Below, one piece after another: positions 6,945-24,949 of a DNA stretch of 64,000 nucleotides (positions are counted from its first letter, which is position 1; the number at the start of each line of letters is the position of its first letter). The stretch spans positions 11,904,001 through 11,968,000 of the forward strand of contig AP026542.1 in assembly GCA_026075535.2 (NCBI GenBank). Reading direction: 5' to 3'. The position numbers and the translations under genes are program-made. This stretch comes from Tricholoma matsutake (Eukaryota > Basidiomycota > Agaricomycetes > Agaricales > Tricholomataceae). The notes beneath the pieces were generated by a model that was not told the DNA's origin, made no database searches, and was given only the letters and a program-made list of their open reading frames with translations.

Positions 6945-7167
6945 ATCTTTGCAATGCATTGATACACCCCGTACACCTCCTCAGCACTTTACTCTGCTTT
7001 ATGAGACACAATTAGTAACAAAGTCTCTGGTGCCATGCCCTACATGTCAATGCACTACAAAAGAGACACGAGGATGAACAACCTTGGGTTGGAGATGAAG
7101 GGTAAATTTGTGGGGCCCATTTGCCCTTTGGAAATTTTGCAGGTCTTCCTGCCTTTCAAAGCAGAGG
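6945..7167 (+). pseudogene. FunK1 fungal protein kinase, N-terminal part
   Basis: The segment encodes a DTPRTPPQ stretch, common at FunK1 starts, and after a frame change MKGKFVGPICPLEILQVFLPFKAE. The last part resembles the FunK1 N-terminal motif (FVGP-x-P-x-x-FL-x-x-FLP). The frame runs straight into the large element at 7168. Joining base 7167 to 22070 continues it as FLPFKAEELQQPPRRM without a frameshift, which shows both pieces were one exon. The gene is therefore interrupted by insertion. The exact start codon is not clear because of the frame change upstream. Confidence 0.65.
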
Positions 7168-7653
7168 CACATAGGTAAGCTACATTGTATCAAATGATAC
7201 AGGCTCAATGGATGCTGTCAAACTCACTATATAAAGTCACTATACTATATTAACCAATGACTACATTGTACACTGATTATTATACCTTACAATAGACATG
7301 CATTAGGAATGTAATACAGACATTAGTAATGTTTGAAATGCAATGGGCACAGACGTGGCCACGGACATGGGGATGGCCACGGCATCGCCATCGGGCATGG
7401 ACACAATATTAACCTATGAATACTATTGACTTTTGATGGATGCTGTCAAACTCACTATATATTTGTACATACTCTATTAATTAACCAATGACTACATTAC
7501 TACTTTACTTGCTGTACCGTACAGACATTAGTAATGTTTGAAATGCAATTGGAGGGAAGGGGACCGGGACTGGGGGCAGGGACCAGGACCAGGACCAGGA
7601 AGCGGCACTGACATCGGAGCTTGACAGGACCACAAAAACAATGATATTTACTA
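7168..7653. repeat. Left terminal inverted repeat of the 14.9 kb element
   Basis: The repeat begins cacataggtaagctacattg and matches the reverse complement of 21497-22062. It contains its own internal duplication: acattagtaatgtttgaaat occurs at about 7320 and 7526, and gatgctgtcaaactcactat occurs at about 7212 and 7440. A G-rich tract at 7552-7605 (runs such as gggactgggggcaggg) could form G-quadruplexes. Confidence 0.88.
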
Positions 7654-7697
7654 TGTACAATGTACTACTACCCACAACACTATATATACATGATGCA

Positions 7698-9210
7698 TCA
7701 TTCAATGTCAGTGTCCATCATCATCTCATCAGGGCTAGACAACCAAGTCTCATTGACATAACTGAAGTCTGCAGGAGTGTAGATCAGCAAAGTGAAGTCC
7801 ACAGGAGGGTAGGTCGGCAAAGTGATACGAGAAGGAGTGGGGTTCTCTATCTGTGATGTGGTAATGGAATCTTCAGAATCGGCCTCAGCATTGGATTCAC
7901 CATTAGATCCAGTCTCTAAGGATGACAGAAAAGCATCTGCAGCATCAGATGCAGTGGGGAAAGCAGCCACATCTGTTGAAGTTGGATTGGCGGCTGGAGA
8001 CAAGGAGGTAGAATCGGAAAGATAAAAAGGTGCAGCATCAAAGCCAGTCAGGGAACCTGTAGGGGAAGACAATGACTGATCATTGTTGCCCTGCCATGCC
8101 ATGAGTGCCTGAAAGGCGGTGGGCTGATCAGCATCACTTGATCCATCGTCTTTGACTTGCCATGCCATGGCTGCCTGAAAGGCAGTGGGCTGATCTGCAC
8201 TTGACGCATCATCTTGGCCTTGCCAAACCATTGCAGTGGGCTGGCTGGCTTCTGCATCGGGCAAGGCATTGGGGACAGGAGTGGCATTGGGAATGGGAGT
8301 GGGAGTGGGAGTGGGAGGAGGAGCAGGGGCAGGAGTGGGGGTGGGAGGCAATGAATTGTCTGCTCCATCACCTGATACTGTGGGTGGTCGACCATAGGCA
8401 TTAAATGCAACTGTTGAGACCATTGGTGTGCTTGACCACACCTTTCTTCCCTTCGCACCATCAGGCAGAGACAACTGATACCCAGAATGCTGTTGTTTGC
8501 CCTTGCTCTTGGTCTTCTCATTAGCACCCAAAACATCACTTTCTGTGATGTCGACACCCCAGGTCCACTTGTAGGAGCTGGGGGGAAGGGACTTCAGGCA
8601 CTCAAGTTCTGCCTGTGCATTTGCTGCCACCAGTTCCGATTTTCTTCTTACTGCTGTTTGCCTTGAAGGTTGCCCAGCGTGTTGAGGGGGTTTTGATCCC
8701 ATTGCCAAAGCCTGTGGTTCAGCCTGGAGCTCCTTCAGCAGGGCAAGCTCATGAACTCAGTGTAATGCTGCTGCTTTCCTGACATTGGCATTCAACGCAG
8801 CATCTGCTGATGATTTGCAGCCATCTATAAAGTGTACTGCGCATTTCATGCAGCATATCATTCAAGAGACCCTGGAGGTTGATGCAGGATTGGCCATCGG
8901 CAGTGGGAGCAGCAACAGCCTGGGAAGCGGGAGCGGGTGAGTCAGACTCAATGAAGTACTGCTTATGGTGATCAAGGCACTGATCCAGGGTGTTGATGCC
9001 CATAATGCTGTCTGCTGCCAGTTCACTATGATGTCTCCACCAATCCAGGGCATATGAGGGCACTAGACTGCTTGTAAGTTCTGGGGGGACACCATCATCC
9101 AACACGGCCAAGAGGGATGGATGGAATCCGAGTGGTAGGTGGTCAAAGTTTACCTCAGCAAGACTGTCAGCCAAGGAACAAAGCAGGATCGGTGTTAGGG
9201 TGACACCCAC
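7698..9210 (-). CDS. Gene A: proline/threonine-rich protein of unknown function
   Basis: The likely start is at 9210, giving LADSLAEVNFDHLPLGFHPS and LDWWRHHSELAADSIMG. A frame change with one stop near 8755-8830 joins it to a 336-residue open part (7698-8708). That part holds KPPQHAGQPSRQTAVRRKSE, then a PTPTPAPAPPPTPTPTPIP run, then three copies of a module like PTAFQAAMAWQGKDDxSS, and an acidic Ser-rich tail ending MMMDTDIE. The module [12 protein letters not shown] followed by WQGQDDASS occurs almost identically in gene C, so the two genes share a repeated cassette. Low-complexity coding may hide introns. I do not recognise a domain; the position inside the TIR element suggests cargo. Confidence 0.5.
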
Positions 9211-10079
9211 TATCTGCTAGCTAAGACTGTGTGGGTTCTCTCTACAAGAAGGGGGTGGGATCCACGCTTGTGATGGGGGGAATTGATGGTTTTGATGTGA
9301 GGGGTTATTAATAGGTGAGTTTGTTGACAAAGGCCTTTCACACCAAAAACGTAGGTGGAATACCTAAGAGAACACAACTGGGTCCCCTAGGTGTATATTT
9401 AGGGTTTATATACTATGTTACACATATTGTACATTGTTGTTACTGACATGTGTGTACATGCACGTACATCTTGATGCATGCGAAATAAAATTCTCATGCT
9501 ATCAAAGTGTAGCATCATTTAGCGTCATTTGGCGTAATGTAGTGTAATTCGACATAATAAAATAAAAATGACATTTTATTAGGTAATGGGGTGGTTTCCT
9601 AACAATCGGCACCTCAAACACCAGGCCGATTGATGTGGCAAAGCTGATTTGAGACATGATGCATAGCTGCAATATTTTTGAGTGACAAATCTCTTACTTG
9701 ATTCATAAAAGGTCCTGCTTACAAGCTCACAATACAGAGCCTTTTGCATCCATTTTTGCTTTAAGACATTTGCCCCTTGCATGTGCAACAGGACTTGATG
9801 GAAACGGGACTCTGCATACCAAATGATCTGCTGTGTACACATTTGGAGTGGACCTTTCAGCCCTGATTGTAAAGAAAAAGGGTTGAAGACTGAGAGACAT
9901 TTATTTGACATGTTGATTGTGGTTAGAGATCAAGATGATTGAGTTTACATATCTAATAGAGGGTTGTAGAGGGGAGATGTAATCAACATTTGCTGATGTG
10001 CCACCGTTCACTGTGATAAATGAAATACTGCACAGTCCACTGCATTTCATATGTGACCAGCAGAAATTCCTCCTTCCAT
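9211..10079. other. No convincing gene
   Basis: The stretch between gene A and the KDZ transposase has an AT-rich part with repeated tagcatcattta/tagcgtcattt/ggcgtaatgt/agtgtaattc variants (9505-9550). One 110-codon open frame on the minus strand (9579-9911) has no recognised motif; it may be a decayed KDZ C-terminal extension, but I cannot show this. Confidence 0.4.
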
Positions 10080-12194
10080 CTATGTCTCTGAGCCCATGAG
10101 CAAAGCCAATGTACTTGCCTGACTATCCAAGAAGTTCAGTGCAATGCAAACAAATAGCCACAAAATAGATGTACATTCCCAGAATCGATCAGCGGGATTG
10201 GGAGCAGGGCCATTAAAGGAAGTGGGATTGGGAATGAGACCGGGAGCGGGAGCGGGTACAGCAGCAGCAGCAGCATCAGGGAGGGCAGTAACACCAGTCC
10301 GAATGTGAGAATTATGCCAAATCCAGGACAGATGAATATTAATGGAGCCTGGCATATTCGGGTTCAGAATAGCTGTGCTAGCATTGAGGTCATCCTTTTT
10401 TAACTGCTGAAACATATTTAAGGTGTCAGTGTCACAATCCAGTGCCACCAATCTGCTTCGGCAATGGTTATACATTCAGGAATGCAGGGCAATTTGGTTA
10501 ACCAACTCCTGGACAGTGGCTCATGCTTGTGTGTGTGAACTACCTTTCTTGGGGCCGCTCGAATAATGTGTGAATATTGAAATGACTTGTCCACAATGAG
10601 CTCCCGCAGCCGATGCAGCAGTTGGCTTGCCTGATTCTTCCTGAGCTGAATCTCCACCTCTGCCAGAGGGCCATTAAATGGAGGTATACTTGTTGCTCCT
10701 CAACTGGAATAGCATTTCTGTCAGCTGGAAGATGTGAAGGCCCCAATGCTGTAGGTGTGTCTTCATCTGAAGGGTCTAACTCATCAGAGTTGTCAACATT
10801 GTAATGGCTGATTTGTGATGGAGCAATGTCATGGTCAGCAACATTGGCAGCATTTTGTAAATCTGTTAAGGTTTCCATGTGGGATGCGAGAGCTTCCCTT
10901 TCCCTTTCAACAGATTGCATGTCAGAAACATTTGGTGATGTACCAATTTGGCAGACTTTGTCTCGTAATTCAATCCTGGTGTATGCCAACAATGGGTTGT
11001 GATATATGAGTATGTTAGGCAGTACTTACTGCATTTGTTGAACAATGATTGCCAAATCAATCCACTCCTCAACTGCAGATTGAACCAGTGCTGGTGCCAC
11101 TCCCATTGCTGGTGCTGATGCTGATGCTGTTCCCACTCCCACTCCCGATCCCTGAGTGGCATAGATATCCATGGCCTTAACATCTGTCAGCCTGAGCGAT
11201 TCTGCTGCAGTCACTTCATCCTCCCATCTTTGGACTGCCTGTTGACCAAATGCTGCTGTAAGGTCAGCATGGTGCTTGCTGAGTTGCATGGAGATCTCAA
11301 GGGCTTCTTGAGATTTTGCACACAGCATAGCGGTCATGCCAAGCATTTTCTTGTGATTTGAGTCTGTAGCATGATCGTTGAGCATTTCTGCCCAATGTGG
11401 CAAGGTCGCTGTCCTGACTGTTGGGGAAATGGAATTCAGTGATGACCACAGGGACTCTAGTATTTCTCCTGCTATGATGCCAGAGCCTGGAATGAAAGAT
11501 GGAGCATAGCAAAAAAAGCATTCATCCTTGTGACCATGTACATGCATAAGCTCAATGGCCTGGTCAATGGTGAGGTCAGCTGGAAGAAGTGGACCAATGC
11601 ACTCCAGAAGGTAGATGATGTACTGGCAGACATAGTGTTTTGAGGTCCAGTTGGGTTGCAGTCTTTTGCAGTCTTTTTAAAATTTAAACTGCCTCCTACT
11701 ACCTCAAACAATGAGATAAAATCATGAAAATATTTGAGCAGATAGATCTGGCCAAAGACTGGGGGGTCATCTCTGGAACATAAGGATTCTGGTCAGTGAT
11801 TGTCAATATAATCACAAAATTTAATCATGGATAGAGAAGTGAAAATAATGGGGGGTCCTCTCTTTGATGAAATGATTTCATCCAGTCATTGCTGAGATAC
11901 AGCAAAACAGCAAAAGACTGGACCTTGAAACACTAGGCAGACAATGTCATAAATCAGCATTACTCCCTGTTGAGGGTCAACCCTGGTAGTCTTCAGTGCT
12001 TGAAGGAAAGCAAAGTCAATGTTCTTTTGCTGTTCTCCCTGGAACAAGTCTACCAATGCATTGGGTGCATAACATCCATGTCGTGCACATGCAATAGCAG
12101 CTACTCCAATCCTATCACATGCCTTTGATGCCAGAAAAGCATTCACAATGGCTAGGAATTTATTTTTGCAAGGTGCCTTCTGCAAAAGGGGCAT
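10080..12194 (-). pseudogene. KDZ (Kyakuja-Dileera-Zisupton) transposase, 5'-truncated
   Basis: On the minus strand, the first piece (from 12194) gives AIACARHGCYAPNALVD, GEQQKNIDFAFLQALKTT and VMLIYDIVC. After a MITE insertion it resumes with QYIIYLLECIGPLLPADLT, HVHGHKDECFFCYAPSFIPG, GEILESLWSSLN and LNDHATDSNHKKMLGM. C-terminal pieces include LRKNQASQLLHRLRELIVDK (10418-10657) and LKKDDLNASTAILNPNMPG (10080-10475). These match the RNase-H-fold core and C-terminal half of KDZ transposases. The N-terminal region with the first catalytic Asp is missing: an intron acceptor tttttgcag-like signal precedes 12194 and gene B starts about 115 bp away on the other strand. The piece is split by frameshifts at about 10600, so it is not functional as it stands. 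Confidence 0.82.
11633..11935. mobile_element. hAT-type MITE inserted in the KDZ transposase
   Basis: The 303-bp element starts tagtgttttgaggtccag and ends with the near-perfect reverse complement (ctggaccttgaaacacta). The 8-bp duplication ggcagaca stands at 11625-11632 and 11936-11943. The terminal TAGTG fits the hAT consensus YARNG, and 8-bp duplications are typical of hAT. Excision of the element plus one duplication copy rejoins transposase residues YDIVC and QYIIYLLE in frame. It has no coding capacity, so a transposase must have come from elsewhere. Confidence 0.9.
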
Positions 12195-12299
12195 GGATCA
12201 GATCACATCAGATCGGGAGTGGGCATGGGAGCAGGGGTGGGTACAGCCACAGCCACAGCCACAGGAACGGCAGTTGCAATGACAGTGGCAGCGGCAAGG

Positions 12300-14291
12300 G
12301 AAGTGTACTTACTGTTAATTGAATCAAAAGCTGCCCAATTGCAAATACTCAAGACTGACATTCTCCCCACCATATTTAATTACTGGGCGTCAATTGAGAT
12401 GACCCCAATAGATCCAGAGGAGAGTCGCATGTGTGCCAAGGTGGGGTATCATCCCATTCAATGTTGTATTATTGATCACATTGCCAGGAACTAACAAACT
12501 GGCTTTCAAACAACTGGCAAATGACGAAAGGCTCCTCAAGGAAGTCAAACAACTTCAAAGTGAAGTGATCAGAAGTGATGTGGAGCTTACACCAGGACTG
12601 AGTTTGGAAAGAGATCGGAGATATGTTAGGTGTTCAGGATGTGTCCACAAGTATGCCTGTATGGTTCCAGAACCAACTGCCAGCCATCAAGAGGGTTTTT
12701 GAAAGCATGACTGCAGAGGGAAAGGCAGTGCTTGAGGCCGATCAGGAGAAAATGGAGGGGGAAGGTTATCCAGAGAAAACAAAGTGAATGTAAGTTAACC
12801 CATTGCTGTTGCCATTGCTGTTGCCACTGCCGATGATGTTATTGATGTTTTGCAGTCAAGCAGAGAAGAACCTGGTTAAGCATGTGGAGGAGACTGCACA
12901 ACAACAGTGGCTAGAAATGGGGGTGCTATCTGTGACATTCACGGCCTACACTGCACCTGATGGTTTGATGGTTGTTGATGCATGAGTGAAAATCTTCCAC
13001 TGCCATTGCTGCTGCCATTGCTGATCCCGCTCCCAATCACAGTCACGAAAATGTTTCATCATTGATGGCCACCCCTGCATGATCCTTCATAGACACAGAT
13101 AATAATGAGATCGCAGAGCTCAAGCGCCACTTCATGGGCTATATCAAGGCTTTATGTGCATCAGACGTTGCTTCAAGGTCAACAGCGCATGGTGACTCAA
13201 TGCAAATCCAACTTGAGATGACTAGCGATGGGTTCCCCATCCTACCCACACCATGGAAAGGCTCACTGTACAAGAAAAAAGAGCTGGAGGAATGGTTTAA
13301 GCTGCATGTTGGGCAGCATTACAGTATGATCACTTCCTTTTCAATGAGTTGTTACTTATCTGCATGCAGAACTAGCAAACAATGGTCATACTCACCATGT
13401 CCCATTTACAGCAATTGCTGAGCACACATTGACATTCATCAATCCAGAATATCTCCCAGCCAGGTTCAAATGGACAGACCCACGGAACATGCAAAAGAGT
13501 GTCATAGAAGACTTCTTCAACCACATTCTGCAGCGGCAAATGGCACAGGGCCCTGAGAGGGCATTCAGGTTCAAAAGAATCAAGCTACACAATGGTAGTG
13601 TCTCTCCTGTGCAATATCCTAATGATTTGAATAGCCCTACACCTTCTCAATGGATGCGCAAACACACTGGCCGACATAATGCAGATGCCACTGCCATGCC
13701 CGATGTAGACTCCCCTGCTGCCGCTACCACTGCCGTGCCCAGTGCAGACAACTCAGTGGCCTGTGCTGACTCAGTCGCTCCTGCACCCGCTCCCATGCCT
13801 GTGCCTGTGCCTGACCCCGAAGGCCAATCCCAAGGCTTAGGTGCATCTTCTCCCAACCCACATTCACAATTGAGAGTCATAAAAGCTGCAAAAGGCAAAT
13901 CCAAGCCAAAGAAACCTGGCCAAAGGTCGATGGCAGAACAGGCACACAACTCAAACACAAGTGCAACTCTGTTGAATGATGGACATACTCTAATGCTGGC
14001 GTCACTCAGCCACAGCCAATTAATGGTCCAGGTGATGGTGAACTGCAGTATCTTATACCTCGAGACACATACATGAGGTACATGGGACCCATGTCAGGCA
14101 ACAATGTGAATGACCCCCCTATTGATCTGTCCCTGTTCCAAAACGACCACTCCACTCTGCCTCCTCAACAAACATCACAATGTCCTAAACCTCGCTCCCT
14201 TTTTCACAACCAGAATATGGGAGTGGCCAGGATACAGGAGCAGCCAGCATGCCCAATGAAGGATTGTCAGCAGTTAGCTATCAACCAATGA
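12300..14291 (+). CDS. Gene B: multi-exon cargo gene of unknown function
   Basis: Several spliced pieces read on the plus strand: AQLQILKTDILPTIFNYWAS (about 12330), NQLPAIKRVFESMTAEGKAV ending GEGYPEKTK at 12786 before a donor-like gtgaatgt, NLVKHVEETAQQQWLEMGVL (from 12856, after acceptor tgttttgcag), EIAELKRHFMGYIKALCASD with SDGFPILPTPWKGSLYKKKE (13100-13320), an intron gtatgatc...gcatgcag (13324-13371), then LTFINPEYLPARFKWTDPRN and a Pro/Ala-rich tail with a Lys-rich patch (KGKSKPKKPG). A late frame shift near 14030 leads to GELQYLIPRDTYMRYMGPMS. The family is familiar to me only as a TE-linked hypothetical of Agaricomycetes. No catalytic motif was seen. One in-frame stop near 13072 suggests decay or an unrecognised intron. 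Confidence 0.5.
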
Positions 14292-14449
14292 CCCCACCCC
14301 CATCCCAACAAAACCTGACAATCAGGCAATCACATCAGCAGTGGCCAGCATGGCAGTGGCCAGCTTGGCCGACATAGGATCATCAACGGTTAGCTATCAA
14401 CCAATGACCCCACCCCCATCCCAACAAAACCTGACAATCAACCAATCAG
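14272..14449. repeat. Direct repeat, period about 116 bp
   Basis: The segment ttagctatcaaccaatgacc ... cctgacaatca occurs at about 14274-14330 and again at about 14391-14446 with almost no change. It overlaps the 3' end of gene B and the spacer before gene C. Confidence 0.8.
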
Positions 14450-14619
14450 AGGGTCGACAATGAAAGACAGCTGATGACCTTGCGCAACAGGAGGCCATTT
14501 TAAACACAACCCTTGGTAAAAGAGAGAAGAGGAAAAATGTGAAATTTTCAGACTAATTATACAACAATATTTCTGTATGAATGTAAAATAAAATGGTCCA
14601 ACCATTACTTTTTTCTGCC

Positions 14620-16503
14620 TCATTTGACCTCCTCTCTGTCCTCGGATGTTCCCGCTCTCTTCTTTGGGTTTGGCTGAGGGCTGGTACTTCCCAAAGGCTG
14701 GGTGGGTGACAAATGGCGAGGGGATCGGCATAATTGTGGAGGAGGAGGGGAATGCGATGCCAGCGGTGAAGGAGGGGCGGGTGGTACAAACACATTGCTG
14801 GTGGATACCGTTACTGGTTCCACAGGGTCAGCATTGGGGATTGAGGGGGGTGGAAGGAGGGGAGGAAGGGGTGCATCCACAGAGGTCATACATTGAACTG
14901 ATTCATGAGAATCTTGTGGTGTGGCAGGGATGACCTTGATTTGAGGACCATGTCCTTCTTCCTCAAGCCCAGTGGGAGCGGGAGTGGGAGCAGCATGTGG
15001 CAGTGTGGGAGCAGGAGAGGGAGCAGGAGTGGGAGTGGGAGAGGGACAGGGAGCACTTGATGCATCATCTTGGCCTTGCCAAGTGGGCTGGCCGGCTTCT
15101 GCATCGGGCAAAGCATCGGGAGCAGCAGCAGCAGTGGCAGGTGGGGGTGCAAGTGCAGGAATGGGGGCGGGAGCGGCAGGTGGGGCATCAGGTGGAAGTG
15201 CGGAAACAGGAGCAGGGGTGGGGGCAGGAGCAGGGGCAGGAGCGGGAGCAACCTCATGTCTGTCTTCCTCAGGCCAAGACGCCTCATGTCTATCTTCCTC
15301 ACTACCAGCATCAGTGGCACCAGCCCTGTGCCAGAGATCCTCCCAAGCAGCGTCCCCAGCATCCTGCTCATCTTTGTTGACCTCCATACCATACCTTCGC
15401 CTATAGCTGGGACCATCTCTAATATAGTGCAGCTCACCTGCACCATTGTACAACACAAGGGGATGTGGGCAGAACCCCATGTACTCTTCCATCTCATCCA
15501 TCCTCCTGCTCAAGCTGGCCATATTCTCCCATATGTTGGCCATTGCTCTGGGGAAGTTCTGATGGAGCCAATCACCCTGATTGTACAGATGGTGCTCCAG
15601 TTCTTGTATACAGTTGTTGAAGTCACAGAGGTCCCCAGCAGTAATGGGAGTGGGAGTGGGTGAGGGCTGGTGTTCATGCACAACATCAACCATCTCGACG
15701 TCAGAGGAATATGTTGCTGTGGTCAATGTTCAGTGGTTATTTGTATGGTGATACATAGTACTTACCCTTTGATTTTCCTTTTTCTTCCCTCATGAACCTC
15801 CACCAGGATCCAGACTTCTTCACCTTTCTTCTGGCTGCACCCTTTCCTTTCTCTGGCTTGTCCCCTCCATGACCATCTTTCATTTTTTTGCACTTGAATT
15901 TGCCCTTCCCACATTTGAGACATGTGCCCTTCCCATTGACCTGTTTGTGACATGACATTGTCTCCCAAGCCGGATGCATTGTATGCAGGGAGTGGGCCTT
16001 ACTGCCCCACACGCTGGTTGTCACCATTGTTCCCTTTGCTCCTTTTGCTCCAACAATCCATCTCCATCGCTTTCCATCCCCTCTGATTCCCCATCATTTT
16101 CACAAATCCTCACCAGAGGTCCTGCCACTCCCACTTGGTCTTGCTGGAGTGGTTGGGGTGGGTGGTGCTGATGGGCGTGTATCTGGGTGTCAATGTTCTG
16201 GCTGGCATGACCTGGATCCAGATGGCTCTGCTGGTGCCTGTGGTTTCCTTCGCCTGGTCTCCCCTGGAGCTCCCGTTCCCACTCCTGTTCCCATCCCCAT
16301 CCCCACTCCCGTCCCCATCCCCACTCCCATCCCCATCCCCGCTCCCATCCCCATCCCCGCTCCCATCCCCACTGCCATCCCCATCCCCACTGCCATCCCC
16401 ATCCCCACTCCCATCCCCATCCCCACTCCCATCCCCATCCCCACTCCCATCCCCATCCCCATCCCCATTCCCATTCCTGTCCCCTCTCCCCTCCGTCATC
16501 CTG
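14620..16503 (-). CDS. Gene C, 3' part: Zn-cluster and coiled-coil protein with Pro/Ala-rich tail
   Basis: Reading on the minus strand from 16503, a long GGGATG-type hexamer tract leads into [20 protein letters not shown] and [16 protein letters not shown] cysteine cluster follows near 15900-16000: [12 protein letters not shown] in one frame and [13 protein letters not shown] in the next, spacing C-x2-C-x6-C twice, as in small fungal Zn clusters. A frame change lies between the two halves. After an intron, ATG at 15726 opens a 368-residue frame with [10 protein letters not shown], a probable coiled coil ([20 protein letters not shown] through [16 protein letters not shown]), a Pro/Ala repeat, and a basic end [17 protein letters not shown]. 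The N-terminal exons continue at 20032-20484 beyond the gypsy insertion. Function unknown. Confidence 0.5.
16265..16485. repeat. CCCATC/CCCACT hexamer array
   Basis: About 35 tandem six-base units of the type cccatc, cccact, cccgct run here. The array reads as [14 protein letters not shown] or WGWEWGW depending on frame, so apparent long ORFs on both strands are products of the repeat. The target site of the gypsy element (ctccc) lies at its right end. Confidence 0.9.
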
Positions 16504-16508
16504 CTCCC

Positions 16509-16640
16509 TGTTACAAATTTTGTTATTGTAACCCATGACGACCAGATGTACGCCAGCAAGACTGGGTACTTTATTTTTCTCATTCGACTCGACTCACTTC
16601 TGATGGGAGATGCCTTGATGCATGGTGACACCATGCACCC
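16509..16640 (+). repeat. 5' LTR fragment of gypsy element 1
   Basis: The stretch starts tgttacaaattttgttattg and matches 19356-19487 until ccatgcaccc, where homology stops. About 13 of 132 positions differ, all transitions. At four places one copy has TG where the other has CA. Confidence 0.88.
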
Positions 16641-16652
16641 GAAGACCTGGAG

Positions 16653-16999
16653 TAGTGTTGCCATGGCTCGAGCCGCGTTTTTTGCTATCTTGGGAAATAA
16701 ATTACATAAAATCACCAAAATATTTGAGGAGCTAGATCCCATCAAACGCCGAGGGGTCTCCTGCCAACTCTAAGTGATCAGAGAAGCAGTTCCTGAGATA
16801 TTCCAGTGGCTTTGAAATGGCTCAAGCCAAGCCATTTCAAAGCCACTGGAATATCTCAGGAACTGCTTCTCTGATCACTTAGAGTTGGCAGGAGACCCCT
16901 CGGCGTTTGATGGGATCTAGCTCCTCAAATATTTTGGTGATTTTATGTAATTTATTTCCCAAGATAGCAAAAAACGCGGCTCGAGCCATGGCAACACGA
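16653..16999. mobile_element. Palindromic hAT-type MITE with identical 168-bp arms
   Basis: The left arm (tagtgttgccatggctcgag... to 16822) is repeated as an apparently perfect reverse complement from 16830 to 16999, apart from two bases at the very ends. The spacer is 7 bases. The 8-bp duplication acctggag lies at 16645-16652 and 17000-17007. TAGTG fits the hAT terminus rule. Internal words such as aaaatatttgag and the ggggtc segment are shared with the MITE at 11633-11935, so both belong to related families. It inserted in the RNase H region of gypsy element 1. Confidence 0.92.
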
Positions 17000-17007
17000 A
17001 CCTGGAG

Positions 17008-18715
17008 ACACTACCTAGTGGGTTCAGGACACCCATTGGTAATCCTGTCGGACCACAAGAACTTGATGTACTTCTGAACAGTGCAGAAATAGAACAGACG
17101 ACAGGCAAGATGGAGCCTATTCCTATCAGAATTTGACTTGCAAATCGTCCATGTGCCTGGATCACAAATGGTACAGAGCGATGCGTTATCACAGAGTGCA
17201 GATCACATACCAGAAGAAGACAACAATAATGAAGACATCATGATGCTGCCAGAGACAGTATTCATGAAATTCATTGATACCGAAATGCATGACTTACTTG
17301 CAGGGAGTATCATGAAAGACGACCTGGTGAAAAGCGCAATCGAGGCGCTAAAGACCAAGGGAATACTGCCGATAAAGTCAGCTTTGGAAGACTGGAAGAT
17401 AGAAGATGGCCTTTTATTCTTCCGAGACAGATGTTACATCCCAGACAATGGAGATCTATGAAAGAAGCTGGTGCAAAAGTACCATGAAGGAGTGACCAGC
17501 AGACACCCAGGACAATGGCAAACAACCAAAATGATCAGGAGAGACTACTGGTGGCCGGGGATGATGATGTACATCAAGAACTATGTTGCTGGATGCGCAA
17601 TATGCCAGCAGATGAAGATCAACATGCACCCGACGAACCCCCCGCTACAACCGATCAAATCTGAAGCGACAAGACCATTCGCTATGGTGACGACAGATTT
17701 CATAACCGACCTACCGGAGTCCGATGGTTATGATGCACTCATGGTCATGGTAGACCATGGGCTTACGAAGGGGGTAATTTTTATCCCTTGCAAGAAAACG
17801 ATAGATGCATTGGGACTGGCCACCCTCTACCTAGACAATGTCTACAAATGATTCGGCCTCCCAGACAAGATCATCTCTGACAGGGACCCACGATTTGCCT
17901 CGCAGCTATTCCAGGAGCTAGGAAGATTGCTTGTAATCAAGCTGGCAATGAGTATGGCATACCACCCCCAGACCGACGGGGAGACAGAACGGGTGTATCA
18001 AGAAGTAGAAGTGTACCTGTGGATCTTCTGCTCGAACAACCAGGAGAATTGGAAGCACCTTCTCCTGACTGTGGAGTTCACACACAACCAGAGGACACAC
18101 TCAGTACAGAGGAACTCCCTGTTCTACCTCATGATGGGCTACGAGCCCAAGGCAATCCTTCTCCCCTACCTGAAGACAAACATACCAGCCATAGAGAAGC
18201 GACTTGTCGCACTACAATGGGCCCGAGACAAAGTGAAGGCAACTCATGAGTTGGCCAGACAAATGATGGCAGAGAGAAAAACGAGACACTTCACCCCATT
18301 CAGAGAAGGAGATAAGGTGTGGCTAGAAGCGAAGAACCTCAAGATGACACACTTGATGAGGAAACTCGCACCGAAAAGAGAAGGACCCTTCACTGTCAAA
18401 GAGGTCTTAGGCCCGCTCTCCTACCGGCTGAAGTTGCCAGAACAGTGGAAGATACACCCGATATTCCATGCAGCACTCCTCTCCCCATACAAAGAAACCA
18501 AAGCACATGGTCCGAACTTCCCAGAACCACCGCCTGATCTAATAGAAGGCGAATCAGAGTATGAAGTGGAAGCGATCATCAGACACAAAAAGAAAGGAAG
18601 AACCATGCACTTCTTAGTGAAGTGGGTCAGATACCCAACCTTGGAGAACTCATGGGAACCCAAGGGAAACCTGACTAATGCCAAGAAAATCCTAGGGGCA
18701 TATAAACAGCGATGA
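17008..18715 (+). pseudogene. Gypsy 1 pol: RNase H, integrase, chromodomain
   Basis: RNase H remains read HPLVILSDHKNLMYF, RRQARWSLFLSEFDLQ and VPGSQMVQSDALSQ. Integrase follows with its HHCC zinc site (YHEGVTSRHPG ... AGCAICQQMK) and the DDE core: TTDFITDLPESDGYDALMVM, SDRDPRFASQLFQ, and YHPQTDGETERVYQEVE. The C-terminus has the GPFTVKEVLGPLSYRLKLP module and IHPIFHAALLSPY, then a chromodomain (YEVEAIIRHKKKGRTMHFLV, KWVRYPTLENSWEP). Chromodomains direct integration to modified chromatin. Premature stops at about 17075, 17098, 17459 and 17849 each fit CGA-to-TGA or CAG-to-TAG changes. The 262-codon part from 17927 is intact. Confidence 0.92.
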
Positions 18716-18842
18716 CAGCTATAGAAACCCCAGACTGAAAACACCCACCAAACTGAAGAAACCACAGAATGCTCCCCCCCTGCCCCCCCCCCCATCGACA
18801 CTTCACCAACCAAACCAACTACAAAACACACCACCCAGATGA

Positions 18843-19298
18843 ATGGTCATTGACCAAAAACCATTAATGAACATACTCCCAGGCAGACCCTCTTGGTTAT
18901 GCCCACATGGGATTCCCTTCTGGATAACAAGGGATGACTGGATTAGAAGGGTGTCCTCAACCTGTCCAAAATGCTGCCTCTTTGCCTGGAGGAGCACGAA
19001 GGCAGACCTGACTCAGGTGAGGACACAGTACGAGGAGTGGTGCTTTGAAGGAGAACTTGACAATGAAGACTATTTCTCCGAAGACTTCTGCATTGATCGA
19101 GAAGGGCTCACCCCCGGTACAAGACCACTAGCGGGAATAAGCAGACCCCTGTGGAGAGACCTCCAATGGAACACCCATTATGATGAGGAGAGCGGATACA
19201 GCCTGGCAAAGAGGCTCCTGCTTGGGGAACATGGAGAACTGGGAACATTACTGAGGTCCAACCGATTCCCTCAGACCCCGATCTGCCCTACCTCCTGA
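18843..19298 (+). CDS. Conserved extra ORF downstream of gypsy 1 integrase
   Basis: This 151-codon frame lies between pol and the 3' LTR. It has RPSWLCPHGIPFWITRDDWI and STCPKCCLFAWRS (two Cys pairs that could hold a metal), then an acidic stretch TQYEEWCFEGELDNEDYFSE and PLWRDLQWNTHYDEESGY. Nearly the same sequence occurs in gypsy element 2 (43972-44247, for example QFEEWCFEGELDDEDYF), so the ORF is a kept part of this family. No membrane or signal segment is visible, so it is not an obvious env gene. Function unknown. Confidence 0.6.
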   Translation: MVIDQKPLMNILPGRPSWLCPHGIPFWITRDDWIRRVSSTCPKCCLFAWRSTKADLTQVRTQYEEWCFEGELDNEDYFSEDFCIDREGLTPGTRPLAGISRPLWRDLQWNTHYDEESGYSLAKRLLLGEHGELGTLLRSNRFPQTPICPTS

Positions 19299-19355
19299 AC
19301 AGAGAAAAGAAGATAGTGATCGAAGTCAGTGACTTCGAAGATAGAGAGAGGGTGA

Positions 19356-20026
19356 TGTTATGAATTTTGTTATCATAACCTACAACGACCAGACATACGC
19401 CGGCAAGACCGGGTACTTTATTTTTCTCATTCGACTCAACTCACTTCTGATGGGAGACGCCTTGATGCATGGTGACACCATGCACCCAAACCACTCCCAC
19501 ACACACTGTGGTATGACAGCCCCTTGTCATGAGGCTTATCCCTTATTGTTCCCTGATATGCTGCACTGCAGCACTCCATGACATCGGACACCTCATGCAA
19601 GTATGAGGCCTGCTGTTTCTATTGCTCTTGTCTATATTTACCTGATAAGCATCTCACCTTCCGATTGGACGATAGATAGTCCTAGAACAGTATATAAGCT
19701 GTAGCTACACTCTGTGTATTCTTCAGCTTGACCTAATTCAATCAACGGTCTTAGACTCAACCAGAACACTTGACAGCTTAGGAAGCCCCTAGCTGTGATA
19801 ACTCAAACTCGACAGTTGGAAAGCCTCCAACTGTGATACACAAACCGATGGTCTACTCAGAAAGCCTCTGAGTACAGATAGCCACAACAACTTGAGGAAG
19901 TACCCAAGTGAAGGCCAGAAGCCTGATACACTAGGAAAGCCTCCTAGTGTGATACCGATATAGTTGGAAAGCCTCCAACTGTGACATACAAAGCCAAGGC
20001 TGAGTTAAAGACCTATATTCTTAACA
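19356..20026 (+). repeat. 3' LTR of gypsy element 1
   Basis: The 671-bp LTR runs from tgttatgaattttg to ctatattcttaaca. A purine tract (gaagatagagagagggtga) precedes it. It holds a TATA-like tatataagc near 19690 and several copies of a ggaaagcctcc-aactgtgat unit near 19810-19985. Flanked on the right by ctccc. Confidence 0.9.
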
Positions 20027-20031
20027 CTCCC

Positions 20032-20484
20032 ATTCCCATTCCCATTCCTGAACCCCCACCTGCCACTCCCACTCCTGATCTTGAAGGACCATCGGCCACT
20101 CCACCTCCCACTCCCGATGCCAAAACCCCTGAGGTTCCTGCAATCCCACCTTTCTTGTTGAATTTTTTCACTGCATGCAGCTGACCTTCCATGAAAATCT
20201 CATCTCCCATTCTATCAGAACTTCCCCATGCTACCAAAAAACCCCACAAGAATAACTTGGCACCAAATGCCGCTTTCAAGTCCTCCCCAAGATCCTGTCT
20301 TTGCCATGAAAATAATGTGTTCTACAGTATATTAGTCCCACTGTCATCCTGATAGTATTTTACTTACAAGTGCCCATTTTTGTTCCCTCATGACGGCCTT
20401 GATGTTTTGTGTTTGAAGGCCGCTTTGAACAGCCTGCTCAATCTGGCTGATGTGGCTGAGGACTTGTTGAGCTGTAACATTCAT
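20032..20484 (-). CDS. Gene C, N-terminal exons
   Basis: The start ATG at 20484 gives MNVTAQQVLSHISQIEQAVQ and KAVMREQKWAL, followed by a donor gtaagtaa and an intron of about 70 bp. The next exon reads DLGEDLKAAFGAKLFLWGFL, SSDRMGDEIFMEGQLHAVKK and FNKKGGIAGTSGVL, then GVGVAGGGSGMGMGMG, which leads into the hexamer tract. Gypsy element 1 cuts the gene here, and the rest continues from 16503 downward. The split is proven by the ctccc duplication. The family is unknown to me beyond being a TE-associated fungal hypothetical. Confidence 0.55.
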
Positions 20485-20672
20485 GTTGAGATGAGTTGGG
20501 AACAGGGATGGGAATGGGGATGGGAGTGATGGGGTTTGAAAGTCAATGAAAGTTGGAAAGATGAAAATCAACCATCACATGTGTTTGTTCATCAAGGCCA
20601 AACAAATAACATCAATATCTGATCACTAGATTAGATGCACATTATAACCTCTGTTACATTGATCCATCCACA

Positions 20673-21411
20673 ATGAGCGACCAGCAGCAAATGCAAGGCA
20701 ATGTTCTAGATGGCTACGTCCCTATCTGAGCCAACAATGGGCACCACTATTTAGTGCCCCACTTTATGATTCCCGCCACTCATCAGGCGATGAATGCCTA
20801 TTGCCAGAAGTTGGAACTTGATGTCCGTAATGCAGATGGAGGAGTAAGCTTTGTTTATTTCAAATTAGGTTGAAGTTAAGGGCTGCTGCCGTGTCTCTGG
20901 CCACTGCTGTGTCTTGGCCACTCCTGTATCCGGGCCGCTCCTGTATCCTGGCTGCTCCCATTTCTCTATCCACTCCTGTGTCTTGTCTGTCCCAACTGAC
21001 ATTATGATCAATTTGCAGTCTGGCAACATGACTGCGCCGCCATACTACCTGGTGGCACGGTGGCCCACAACCAGCTCACCCTACCTGCTGATCCAGTAAG
21101 TGTCATCCTCATTTGTGTTTCTACATTAGTTCATCCTGTTGCAGGACTTGACAGACAGGGAGTTGTTGAGCTGCCATGCTGAAGTGAAGGCCCTTCAAGA
21201 CCAGCTTGGCATATCATACAAGGATGCCAGTCATTGTCTGTACATGGCTGAGGTGGAGAAGCTCGAACAACAAGATATAACATTGAAAACATATGCCATT
21301 TTGAAGGAAAGGGTTGAAAATAAGTTGAAATCATTCGAAAGGAGGTTCTCAGAAATTATGCCATCATCCCACTCAGATGCTATGGCTGATTGCCCTGCCG
21401 ATTCCCAGTGA
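20673..21411 (+). CDS. Gene E: small three-exon protein with coiled coil
   Basis: Exon 1 starts at ATG 20673 (MSDQQQMQGNVLDGYVPI, then a TGA stop, then HHYLVPHFMIPATHQAMNAY) and ends before gtaagctt near 20843. Exon 2 is about 21018-21096 (MTAPPYYLVARWPTTSSPYL), bounded by atttgcag and gtaagtg. Exon 3, 21145-21411, gives LTDRELLSCHAEVKALQDQL, GISYKDASHCLYMAEVEKLE and KERVENKLKSFERRF, a likely coiled coil. Splice signals are clean. The single TGA in exon 1 would end translation after 18 residues unless it is bypassed or translation starts later. Function unknown. Confidence 0.55.
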
Positions 21412-21496
21412 TGTGGAAGGATAATTAATACCTTACTCATTATATATATATCTATGTAGCTTTTGTCTGTATTCTGTTCTTAATGCACATCATTGT

Positions 21497-22062
21497 AGTA
21501 ATATCATTGTTTTTGTGGTCCTGTCAAGCCCTGATGTCAGTGCCACTTCCCCATTCCCATCCCCATCCCTGCTCCCATCCCCTGTCCCCATCCCCACTCC
21601 TGTCTCCATCCCTGTCCCCATCCCTGTCCCCTTCCCTGCAATTGCATTTCAAACATTACTAATGTCTGTACTATGTTCTTAATGCACATCTATCTGTACG
21701 GTACAGCAAGTAAAGTAGTAATGTAGTCATTGGTTAATTAATAGAGTATGTACAAATATATAGTGAGTTTGATGGCGTCCATCGAAAGTCAATAGCATTC
21801 ATAGGTTAATATTGTGTCCATGCCCAATGGCGATGCCGTGGCTGTCCCCATGGCCGTCCCCATGTCCGTGGCCATGTCTGTGCCTGTTGTATTTCAAATG
21901 TTACTAATGTCTGTATTACATTCCTAATGCATGTCTATTGTAAGGTATAATAATCAGTGTACAATGTAGTCATTGGTTAATATAGTATAGTGACTTTATA
22001 TAGTGAGTTCGACAGCATCCATCAAACCCATATCATTTGATACAATGTAGCTTACCTATGTG
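21497..22062. repeat. Right terminal inverted repeat of the 14.9 kb element
   Basis: It is the reverse complement of 7168-7653 and ends ctacaatgtagcttacctatgtg-like sequence at 22062. It is about 80 bp longer than the left copy because of an expanded C-rich tract (21549-21640, ccccatccc units). It carries the same internal duplication as the left repeat. Confidence 0.88.
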
Positions 22063-22063
22063 T

Positions 22064-24949
22064 CAGAGGAGCTTCAGCAACCACCAAGGAGGATGAAAAA
22101 GCCATTCCAACATGTGGCTGAGCAGGCAGTGGAGACCGCCATGTATGGCCCTATGGTATGTCCCCTGGCTCTGTCTGTTTTGTATATGCATATGAGTCCC
22201 CCAGATCATAGTGCTGAAGTGTTACTGTCCTGGCTTCGATCTCGTGGACACCCTATGATAGTCATTGGGACATGAACATCAGTAAGAACAAACCTGAAAT
22301 CAAACCAGATGTTTCTCCCTATATATCGGGGTGTTGTAGAGACTCCACCATCATAACCAACATCTCTCAAATCAATGTTCATATGGAGTTCAAGATGGAC
22401 CCTAACGACGACCCTTTCCATGATCCTGTCCCCCCTTTGGAGAACAACACTCACGACAGCAATGACCCTACCCATGGTAGTCTCCCATTTGAGAACAACA
22501 CACTATCGAGTGCAGTGTCAAGACCGATTCTTCCGACCGGACTTCCAATCGTTTTCTGCCCCCCTTTCCAGCTGCCTTACATCACAGCCCACCTCCTATC
22601 AGCAGCACTGCCTAGAGGCAAAATTCCCTCATTTCCAATTAAGTGAAACAGTTTCAGGAATTGCCTCAGAAGCTGGTTTTCATATTAGCCACAGCCTCGG
22701 AAACTCCGACCTTAGTATTTAAGCTAGCTACTTCCATTTTGTATCGCCAGTTTGTAAATCAACCAAGTCTCCTACTTAATCCTATCCTCTTTAAACTCCA
22801 ATTACGTTCTTAAGTCATTTTTGAACTCTTGCTCATCCTCTCCAGAAACTCTCCAGACCTCTGGTCATCTTCCTTACCCTCACCTTGAAATTAGGACACT
22901 TGACGAGGAGAAGGGCGCAACTTCTTATAAGTTGAAGCCAAGTCCTTTCTGCTCCCCCACTTGGTGCGACACATCAAGTAAACCCCGCCCCGGATTTCCA
23001 TAGGATTCCCTGTCTTACTCGTTCCATCCTCTACAACTCCTATTGTCCGGGTACAACCGGAATTCTGACGACTTCCCTTTCAAGTTCAGTACTTAACACA
23101 TGGACACCATGGGCCAAATAACCTGTTATGCTACACAACAACTTGCCAGCCAGTTTCACACCCATTCATTCTCTGTGCTCATCTGTAAAGATAGGGTGAG
23201 GCTGATCCACTGGGATTGTTTGGGCACCATCATTATGTGATCCTTTTCATATGTGGAGGAGCCGTGGTTGGTCAATTTTTTCTGGCAATATACCCACTCG
23301 TCACACAGCAGTGCATGGAGTTGATGAATCTGTCACCGCACCTGGCAATGCAGATGCAACCTATGTTCAAAAAGCAAGAGCCACTCTTGGGCTCAAAGAT
23401 GAAACGCCCTTGTGCAAGTTTATGATCTATGGGGAGGTGGAGGGGGATGTCACTTATCATTTTGGTAACAAGCCATGGTTCAAGGGCAATGGGTTGCCAA
23501 CAGGTCGAGCCACCCAGGTCTTCACTGTTTACACCCCGGACCTCAATAAGTGTGTCCTCATGAAAGACACTTGGAGGGTATCCCTTCATGGTATGCAAAG
23601 AAGGTGCTATATATTGGTGCCTTCATGCAGCTAAAGTGTTATTGCACGTTTTGTCTGTGGTGGCGATGTCACTTTGCCATCATTCACACTTGTTTGCCAA
23701 ATGCTGTGGTCTAAGACTCTGACCCCATAGCCACTATTGCTTCATTCTTGACAATATTGGTTGTGATCTGACATTGTTCACAATGACGAAGGAGCTGGTT
23801 GAGACTCTGACTGTTGGCTTGCAAGATATGTGAAGCAAAGATTTCTGTTCCTGTCTGCTTATCCCTCTTTCCCCTTAGCTCATATGGAAGCTTTTGAAAA
23901 TGCAAAAATCCTACATCACAATATTAGTGTTGGCAACATCATAATCAGTGATTGTGGTGGGCTCTTAATCAACTGGGATTTTGCCAAGGATATCAAGGAT
24001 CTTGGAAAGATCTCTCAGCAACCATTCCACAGGGTAAGTCTCACCTTCGATGAATCTGATGACCAGTGTATCATGGCTGTCCTGACATCCTTGCAGGGGA
24101 CATGGCAGTTCATGGCTGCCTGGCTGTTGCAAGCCAAGGAATTGGCAGTACACACCCAGGCTGATGACTGGGAGTCTTTTTTCCATGTCTTGAGTTGGGT
24201 TGTCTTGCACTTTACTAGACATGGACTCAACTCAGCTGAGCTGACAAATGAGTTGAGGAATACCTACGATGACTCATACTTGGACAGCAGTAAGGTCTAC
24301 AGAGGTGGGAACAAGAAGAGTTGTATTAAATCCTGGTTCATATCTTCCAATGCTCAAATCCCTCCTGGCCCTCTTCTTGATCTTCTCAAGGACCTTGTCA
24401 ATGTGTGTGCTATCTGCTATGAAGACCCACCTACCAAGGAAGCTCAGGAGCAATATGAGCTTTCTTTACAGGCAGTTGTTTGAGATCTGTCCCTTGCTGC
24501 TATTCTGGTCGACCATCCTGTCAAACTTTACCACAATCTCAAAGAGAAACTCAAAGCATTGTGGATAGATTTAGGGAGGCAGAAAACAGTCAGGCATGGG
24601 ATATGGGGCCAGAAGGACAACAGTTTGAAAATCCATTAACTTGGGTTGATGAAGTGGTCATCACAACTAAGCACCAAAGTGAATTCAAGACTGACATACC
24701 CCAACAGAGCAAAAGGTCAAACCGATGCTGAATGGTGGTGAACATGCAACAGTGCAGGACATATCAAAGGCAGATCCTGATGACATCGCAGAGGAAGGTG
24801 ATGAATGTGGTGCCAGCGAGAATGGGGAAGATATTGATGAACACAAGTTGAATGAACATGTAGTGGTGGCAAAATGGGATGAAGCTGAAATGGACTGGGA
24901 GGGTGATGAGGGCAAACTGCTTGATGAGCCTCAGAGAGGCTCAGTCTAG
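22064..24949 (+). pseudogene. FunK1 fungal protein kinase, main part
   Basis: After the TIR element the exon continues EELQQPPRRMKKPFQHVAEQ and AVETAMYGPM to the donor gtatgtcc at 22156. The next exon begins after cccccag near 22204 (VLKCYCPGFDLVDT) and runs, with a 1-base frame change, to HMEFKMDPNDDPFHDPVPP. A solo LTR (22511-23098) interrupts it, then MGQITCYATQQLASQFHTHS, FGNKPWFKGNGLPTGRATQV and VLMKDTWRVS follow. The catalytic region reads ILHHNISVGNIIISDCGG and LLINWDFAK, then GTWQFMAAWLL and DDWESFFHVLSWVVL. FunK1 kinases normally have HRD and a D-W-D box; here both key Asp positions are Asn, so activity is unlikely. The end near 24949 is acidic (ADPDDIAEEGDECGASENGE). Confidence 0.85.
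22511..23098 (+). repeat. Solo LTR (gypsy-like) inside FunK1
   Basis: The interrupting sequence runs from about tgcagtgtcaagaccg to caagttcagtacttaaca. It has a TATA-like tagtatttaagc at about 22712. Its second half is related to 35280-35464 (shared ggtgaagggtgcaacttct type sequence, then gttgaagccaagtcctttct), so both come from one LTR family. No target duplication is visible; the 5' boundary is therefore approximate. Confidence 0.65.

What the first reader, a model, noticed from the sequence alone, without database searches (positions are those of the whole stretch)
7162..22069. A 14.9 kb gene-carrying TIR element sits in a kinase exon and its removal restores the frame
Long inverted repeats (7168-7653 and 21497-22062) bound a unit holding a KDZ transposase and at least four unrelated genes. 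The flanks share cagagg. Joining base 7167 to 22070 gives an in-frame FunK1 sequence (FLPFKAEELQQPPRRM), so both boundary and target are fixed by the sequence itself. KDZ elements with cargo are known from basidiomycetes, but this gene set, and TIRs that begin cacatagg with internal duplicated blocks, are not something I recognise. This is the best candidate here for an undescribed system.
Basis: partly seen in the sequence, partly recalled or inferred. Interest (0 to 1): 0.85.

Follow-up and report, generated by a model that had tools for sequence, protein, structure and literature searches.

The report
Mushroom KDZ transposon disrupting a kinase
A damaged copy of a jumping gene that is common in this mushroom genome (probably matsutake) sits inside a fungal kinase gene; the "extra genes" it seems to carry are its family's own gene set, part of which has relatives beside related transposases in other mushrooms and has no known function.

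Summary
A 14,895-bp unit (7168-22062) with long imperfect TIRs lies in the 5' exon of a FunK1-type kinase gene (PF17667); the target duplication is 7 bp (GCAGAGG/TCAGAGG, 6 of 7), not 6. A paralogous exon in the same genome is uninterrupted at the joint. The "unrelated cargo" reading fails: such termini occur 543 times in the genome (control 0), and 4 of 7 other copies of 11 kb or more carry the same five genes (KDZ transposase with CxC2 plus four proteins without a Pfam match above cut-off); two more carry part of the set. The window copy is degraded: 2.0 kb of transposase/gene 3 is missing, a 0.3-kb insert splits the KDZ domain, and a 3.5-kb insert carries Ty3/gypsy domains. Nine of 14 copies have exact 7-bp duplications. 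7-bp TSDs and CA..TG ends match published Kyakuja elements, which are described without TIRs and with TET/JBP genes; here TIRs are long and no TET gene was found in 14 copies. Genes 3 and 5 have relatives on contigs with related KDZ transposases in Amanita, Panaeolus, Flammula and Phlegmacium. Verdict: a long-TIR variant of a known transposon kind, with an unexplained accessory module.

The parts
7161..7167 (.). left target-site duplication, GCAGAGG
22063..22069 (.). right target-site duplication, TCAGAGG (6 of 7)
7168..7653 (+). left terminal inverted repeat, 5'-CACATAGGTAAG, with internal duplicated blocks and a G-rich tract
21497..22062 (-). right terminal inverted repeat
7701..9216 (-). 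gene 1 (frames 8752-9216 and 7701-8756), no Pfam match; in 10 of 14 copies at 0.78 coverage or more
10083..12197 (-). remnant of the KDZ transposase gene; PF18758 in 11889-12197 and 11029-11676; the rest assigned by similarity to other copies
11633..11935 (.). about 0.3-kb insert in the KDZ domain; absent from 6 of 6 copies that align on both sides
12319..12321 (.). junction at which about 2.0 kb is missing that 6 of 6 copies aligning on both sides have (CxC2 half of the transposase and start of gene 3); E11k lacks the region altogether
12321..14288 (+). gene 3 remnant; relatives named in Amanita and Panaeolus
14623..16093 (-). gene 4; in E11k, E17k and E23k an open C-x2-C-x6-C-x9-C-x2-C-x6-C motif with Zn2Cys6-like spacing, not open in the window copy
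16510..20027 (+). later insertion with Ty3/gypsy-type domains: Integrase_H2C2 (17462-17848), SH3_Tf2-1 and Chromo (17852-18712); absent from 5 of 5 copies that align on both sides; described only
20610..21408 (+). gene 5, short protein with predicted long helices (model made from a relative, P0010); the window copy has a stop within its first exon
7075..7167 (+). 5' part of the interrupted kinase exon
22070..22155 (+). 3' part of the interrupted kinase exon (GT follows at 22156)
23803..24480 (+). Pkinase_fungal (FunK1, PF17667) domain, taken to be of the same gene

Best explanation
The unit is a degraded, non-autonomous copy of a high-copy DNA transposon family of the KDZ kind in a genome that fits Tricholoma matsutake. 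Shown: TIR ends, 7-bp target duplication, empty paralogous site, many copies of the ends, a common gene set (KDZ/CxC2 transposase plus four further genes) in 4 of 7 other long copies, and short derivatives with the same ends. Shown by lists only: relatives of genes 3 and 5 on contigs with related transposases in other Agaricales. Inferred: cut-and-paste transposition with a 7-bp staggered cut by the KDZ transposase acting on the long TIRs; short copies moved in trans; accessory proteins (one with a Zn2Cys6-like Cys motif, one largely helical) serve as DNA-binding or assembly factors of the transposition complex, or regulate the element. The insertion broke a FunK1-type kinase gene that carries a second interruption as well.
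For: Termini 261+282 with control 0; 14 convergent neighbouring pairs among the 98 listed exact termini, 721 bp to 45 kb; 7-bp TSDs; shared interior and gene set; KDZ E 1.2e-34 and CxC2 E 3e-16 on other copies; empty site; pN/pS lowest in the coding frame for the KDZ core (0.40 against 0.77 and 0.82), a C-terminal KDZ part (0.52 against 0.64 and 0.71), gene 4 (0.44 against 0.69 and 1.14) and two of three gene 1 parts (0.38 against 0.57 and 0.79; 0.57 against 0.69 and 0.74); relatives beside KDZ in other species.
Against: No copy was shown to be active; no transcripts. pN/pS does not favour the coding frame for the N-terminal KDZ part (0.63 against 0.60 and 0.60), one gene 1 part (0.89 against 0.84 and 0.52) and gene 3 (0.57 against 0.41 and 0.73), and only slightly for gene 5 (0.56 against 0.63 and 0.80). 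1 of 14 copies has no duplication. 3 of 7 other long copies lack part of the gene set. That KDZ and no other enzyme cuts these ends is inference from its presence in the long copies and from known families.
Confidence: 0.88

Rival explanations
1. Cargo transposon: the non-transposase genes were picked up by this copy and differ between copies.
For: Copy lengths vary widely (721 bp to 23 kb among the 13 complete pairs read), and E19k covers only 0.10 of the window interior.
Against: 4 of 7 other long copies carry the whole set, two more a part of it. E19k holds a different KDZ gene (KDZ E 8.7e-24), most simply another element nested in a short derivative, and the window's own extra 3.5 kb has Ty3/gypsy domains.
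Confidence: 0.05
2. The accessory genes are a passenger block, for instance another old element nested in the KDZ ancestor and merely amplified with it.
For: No known function and no Pfam match above cut-off; no or weak pN/pS signal for genes 3 and 5; 10 of 16 contigs outside Tricholoma with gene 3 or 5 have no listed KDZ; in the tree the linked transposases are not significantly clustered.
Against: Genes 3 and/or 5 lie beside a related KDZ elsewhere (Amanita JOM56_014239/014243, Panaeolus CVT24_010959/010960, three Flammula contigs), which a passenger would hardly keep over such distances.
Confidence: 0.15
3. The interior is ordinary introns and exons of the kinase locus, or an assembly artefact.
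For: One assembly; no reads were available.
Against: Uninterrupted paralogous exon; exact 7-bp duplications at 9 of 14 copies on different contigs.
Confidence: 0.01

Closest known systems
Kyakuja lineage of KDZ transposons (Kojima 2025, PMC12730594; outline with abstract, passages and figure legends seen)
   Same: KDZ transposase; 7-bp TSDs; 5'-CA..TG-3' termini; Agaricomycetes
   Different: [quoted passage not shown] here long TIRs, and no TET gene in 14 copies
KDZ1-3 of Cryptococcus neoformans (PMC12810828, passages seen)
   Same: KDZ elements of about 9-11 kb with TIRs of 139-241 bp that insert in a gene
   Different: TSDs of 8 bp (4-8 bp for KDZ2 and KDZ3) and a CxC1 domain; here 7 bp and CxC2
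CxC2-preceded KDZ transposons of Pleurotus ostreatus (PMC7641404, passages seen)
   Same: intact KDZ transposons preceded by a CxC2 region
   Different: no TSD, TIR or accessory module in the passages seen
Giant KDZ elements with accessory genes, Ectocarpus and fungi (PMC12477816, passages seen)
   Same: KDZ elements above 10 kb with additional genes and nested insertions
   Different: other host; this gene set is not named in the passages seen

Membership tests
KDZ superfamily | KDZ transposase domain PF18758 | tested here: met
   window pieces E 6.1e-16 and 1.3e-13; E15k copy 1.2e-34
KDZ superfamily | Cys-cluster domain of the CxC type upstream of the core | tested here: met
   CxC2 PF18803 E 3e-16 in copy E17k; this half is missing from the window copy
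Kyakuja lineage | 7-bp TSD | tested here: met
   9 of 14 exact, 2 of 14 6/7, 2 of 14 5/7, 1 of 14 3/7
Kyakuja lineage | 5'-CA..TG-3' termini | tested here: met
   CACATAGG..CCTATGTG
Kyakuja lineage | no TIRs, as described for the two Laccaria families | tested here: not met
   end-to-end local alignments from 136/142 nt (E17k) up to the 900-nt limit of the test in 14 copies; whether lack of TIRs defines the lineage is not stated in the passages seen
Kyakuja lineage | transposase falls in the Kyakuja clade of the KDZ tree | not tested
   reference Kyakuja, Dileera and Zisupton sequences were not at hand; the tree holds 29 of the 120 listed database hits and two rows of this genome
TET+ Kyakuja | TET/JBP gene inside the element | tested here: not met
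   5 TET frames of this genome against 14 copies by tblastn, E 0.01: no hit; the same frames find the sibling locus at 5.5e-42 or better
Zisupton lineage | 8-bp TSD | tested here: not met
   comparison at 8 bp gives at most 4/8 in 14 copies
Cargo element with copy-specific genes | gene content unrelated between full-length copies | tested here: not met
   4 of 7 other long copies carry the whole set, 2 of 7 a part, 1 of 7 (E19k) mostly other sequence

The most novel reading that the evidence does not exclude
A clade of KDZ transposons in Agaricales works with a conserved multi-protein set: the transposase, gene 3, a Zn2Cys6-like DNA-binding protein (gene 4) and a helical partner (gene 5) form a dedicated transposition complex that recognises long, internally repeated TIRs, in place of the TET/JBP strategy of other Kyakuja-type elements.
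Probability: 0.3. Interest if true: 0.65.

Novelty: new variant of a known kind. Interest (0 to 1): 0.42.

Why it matters
KDZ elements are named among the largest DNA transposons (PMC12477816) and called understudied (PMC8290104). An accessory gene module that has relatives beside related transposases in several mushroom families gives a concrete set of proteins to test for a role in transposition, and the family shows that KDZ elements with 7-bp TSDs and CA..TG ends can have long TIRs. The kinase insertion with its empty paralogue is clean but ordinary.

Tried and rejected
Cargo reading: rejected by comparison of copies. A second transposase type under the same ends: suspected from long reading frames in the KDZ list; not so in the one such copy fetched (C10el carries the family's gene set); the others were not read. 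E19k as a true cargo carrier: it holds a different KDZ gene; that this is nested is inference, its ends were not looked for. Codon-position profile along the element: too weak to draw exons. TET association: one sibling KDZ (85% over 188 residues of the core) lies next to a TET/JBP domain at C5:722500-731500, but gene 3 breaks off before it, so a nested or broken arrangement cannot be told from a TET+ family. A first TET search took frames of the wrong strand for 3 of 4 loci and gave one weak hit in E19k (2.6e-4); it was replaced (no hit, with a positive control). The model of gene 3 (from the Amanita relative P0002, mean pLDDT 50.3) was too poor to search; that of gene 5 (from P0010, 78.1, pTM 0.46) has no PDB match better than E 0.98. 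Papers: the listings of searches show no title or abstract start on this family or module, and a paper on T. matsutake transposons (PMC6980582) holds none of the terms KDZ, Kyakuja, DNA transposon, TIR, class II; supplements were not open to me. Iyer et al. 2014, which defined KDZ (recalled, and cited as such in passages), is not held and could not be checked.
Full report
What was checked. The two ends of the unit are inverted repeats: three ungapped pairs of arms of 215, 183 and 95 nt with 93, 92 and 81% complementarity, offset by insertions and deletions; a gapped alignment runs 598/714 nt from the very ends with 90.8% identity apart from gaps. The flanks are GCAGAGG (7161-7167) and TCAGAGG (22063-22069).

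The genome. The window lies in an assembly of 161,040,721 bases in 13 contigs. This agrees with the published telomere-to-telomere assembly of Tricholoma matsutake, 13 sequences of 161.0 Mb with 71.6% repeats (PMC10211490, abstract start and passages), and the best database hits of the family's proteins are named T. matsutake (85% for the transposase; 84% for gene 5).

Copies. The 24-base terminus with up to 3 mismatches occurs 261 times on one strand and 282 on the other, the reversed control 0 times; 100 places were listed, 98 of them exact. Among these 98 there are 14 convergent neighbouring pairs closer than 60 kb, 721 bp to 45 kb long. Besides the window I fetched 12 of them (the 45-kb pair was left out) and one further copy found from a KDZ hit (C10el). 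Of these 14 copies 9 have an identical 7-mer on both sides, 2 (window, L020) 6 of 7, 2 (L018, E17k) 5 of 7, and 1 (E13k) 3 of 7, that is none; no other length from 2 to 11 gives such a pattern. The target duplication is thus 7 bp.

The empty site. A query made of the two flanks joined at 7167|22070 matches C1:15045029-15045450 over bases 5-449 of 449 at 87%, and the alignment has no gap at the joint (gaps of 2 and 21 bases lie elsewhere in the exon). A more distant copy on C9 has the same exon and a Pkinase_fungal domain downstream. In the window this domain lies at 23803-24480, so the broken gene is a FunK1-type kinase. Compared with the C9 copy the gene has another interruption between about 22512 and 23102, so it is broken more than once.

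What is inside. In window order: gene 1 (minus), KDZ transposase (minus), gene 3 (plus), gene 4 (minus), gene 5 (plus). By tblastn of six protein pieces against 14 copies, E13k, E15k, E17k and C10el carry all (coverage 0.91-1.00 of each piece); E23k all but gene 5; E11k genes 1, 4 and 5 but neither transposase nor gene 3; L022 (8.3 kb) the transposase and gene 1 with bits of genes 3 and 5; E19k gene 1 and a distant KDZ (0.76 and 0.39 of the two transposase pieces); L018 and L021 gene 1 only; L019 and L020 part of gene 5 only; L017 (721 bp) none. The window has all but the CxC2 half of the transposase. The transposase of other copies has CxC2 and KDZ domains. In the window about 2.0 kb is missing at 12320 that 6 of 6 copies aligning on both sides have (E13k, E15k, E17k, E23k, L022; C10el), and a 0.3-kb insert lies at 11633-11935 within the KDZ domain. 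The stretch 16510-20027 is absent from 5 of 5 copies that align on both sides (E11k, E13k, E15k, E17k; C10el); it encodes Integrase_H2C2, SH3_Tf2-1 and Chromo domains and is a Ty3/gypsy-type insertion or part of one. E23k holds a diverged stretch of the same kind elsewhere (67-74%). It was described only. So the window copy is dead as it stands and owes part of its length to later insertions.

The accessory genes. None of the frames tested has a Pfam match above cut-off; the weak ones are DDE_1 E 0.078 for gene 3 and Rox3 E 0.0086 for gene 4. Gene 4 has, in E11k, E17k and E23k, an open motif C-x2-C-x6-C-x9-C-x2-C-x6-C (the same pattern also met one low-complexity frame of the window, which I take for chance); the spacing is that of Zn2Cys6 clusters as I recall it, but Pfam's models do not report it. 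Gene 5 is predicted, on a relative, as two short strands and long helices with no PDB match better than E 0.98. In comparisons within the family (E15k against 7 other copies) the coding frame has the lowest pN/pS for the KDZ core, a C-terminal KDZ part, gene 4 and two of three gene 1 parts, slightly for gene 5, and not for the N-terminal KDZ part, one gene 1 part and gene 3. Most substitutions are those of dead copies, so this is weak evidence.

Outside this genome. Gene 3 found 8 proteins, two named by species: Amanita muscaria JOM56_003789 and Panaeolus cyanescens CVT24_010960. Gene 5 found 101 proteins, those named by species from Tricholoma, Amanita, Flammula, Phlegmacium and Hebeloma. The transposase found 121 proteins at E 1e-60 or better, 120 listed, among 5080 candidates. 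Putting the lists together: JOM56_003789 (gene 3) and JOM56_003791 (gene 5) share a contig of 4,577,153 bp, without a listed KDZ; JOM56_014239 (KDZ) and JOM56_014243 (gene 5) share one of 1,007,979 bp; CVT24_010959 (KDZ) and CVT24_010960 (gene 3) share one of only 10,211 bp. Counted by contig, a listed KDZ is present on 3 of 4 Flammula contigs with gene 5 (18,688, 215,760 and 348,834 bp), 1 of 4 Amanita, 1 of 6 Phlegmacium, 1 of 1 Panaeolus and 0 of 1 Hebeloma: 6 of 16. That two proteins lie on one contig is read from equal contig length within one species, and their nearness from running locus tags; the DNA itself could not be fetched, and a KDZ beyond the listed 120 would be missed. In a tree of 31 transposases (29 of the 120 hits and two rows of this genome) the window family, both A. 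muscaria rows and the 3 linked Flammula rows fall in one supported set of 10 (98/95), while 3 Flammula transposases without a listed gene 5 fall elsewhere. Against a single origin, the linked Phlegmacium and Panaeolus rows lie outside that set, and 'linked' is not significantly clustered over the tree (7 changes, 147 of 500 shuffles as low). So relatives of the module sit with this kind of transposase in several families of Agaricales; how strictly they travel together is open.

Comparison with what is known. Kojima 2025 (PMC12730594; outline with abstract, passages, figure legends) reports for Kyakuja 7-bp TSDs, CA..TG ends, no TIRs, and TET/JBP genes; Zisupton has 8 bp. Tricholoma does not occur in that text. 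C. neoformans KDZ1-3 have TIRs of 139-241 bp, a CxC1 domain and TSDs of 8 or 4-8 bp (PMC12810828, passages). Intact P. ostreatus KDZ transposons are preceded by CxC2 (PMC7641404, passages). KDZ elements are said to carry accessory genes frequently in fungi (PMC12477816, passages), and TIR motifs of KDZ and Plavaka elements were characterised in Marasmius oreades (PMC8290104, passages; the figure was not seen). So the kind is known. Here TSD and end dinucleotides agree with Kyakuja, the long TIRs do not, and 5 TET frames of this genome find nothing in 14 copies, although the genome holds 61 TET/JBP matches, 3 of them within 15 kb of one of the 150 KDZ places that I took from the list. I call the family Kyakuja-like and do not file it as Kyakuja, since the decisive tree could not be made.

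Verdict. A real, well-bounded insertion; a dead copy of a very common element; an interesting but not unheard-of element family, whose open question is the job of the accessory proteins.

Noticed in passing
window 16655-16997: A 343-bp near-perfect palindrome (two 168-nt arms, 100% complementary, 7 nt apart) inside the later insertion; a related single arm lies in another copy (L021 3494-3665, about 80%).
   Followed up: partly
window 22512-23102: A second interruption of the same kinase gene, downstream of the transposon, relative to the C9 copy.
   Followed up: partly
L047+L050 (C5:722500-731500): A sibling KDZ element (73-75% DNA identity, same start of gene 3) with a TET/JBP domain about 0.6 kb beyond the point where gene 3 breaks off; nested or a TET+ relative.
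   Followed up: partly
L029+L030 (C3:2178815-2198126): A 19.1-kb copy with an exact 7-bp duplication whose interior holds a different KDZ gene and a Cys-rich protein without Pfam match.
   Followed up: partly
window 16216-16509, 8252-8347, 14994-15248: Arrays of 6- and 18-bp repeats in coding frames (Pro-rich tracts) that resemble the G-rich tract of the TIRs.
   Followed up: no
window 26147-28746: A row of long plus-strand frames that recalls a Plavaka-type transposase from memory; 5 of 5 frames tested have no Pfam match.
   Followed up: partly
L017 (C1:17172544-17173264): A 721-bp derivative with the same ends and an exact 7-bp duplication, a short non-autonomous form.
   Followed up: partly
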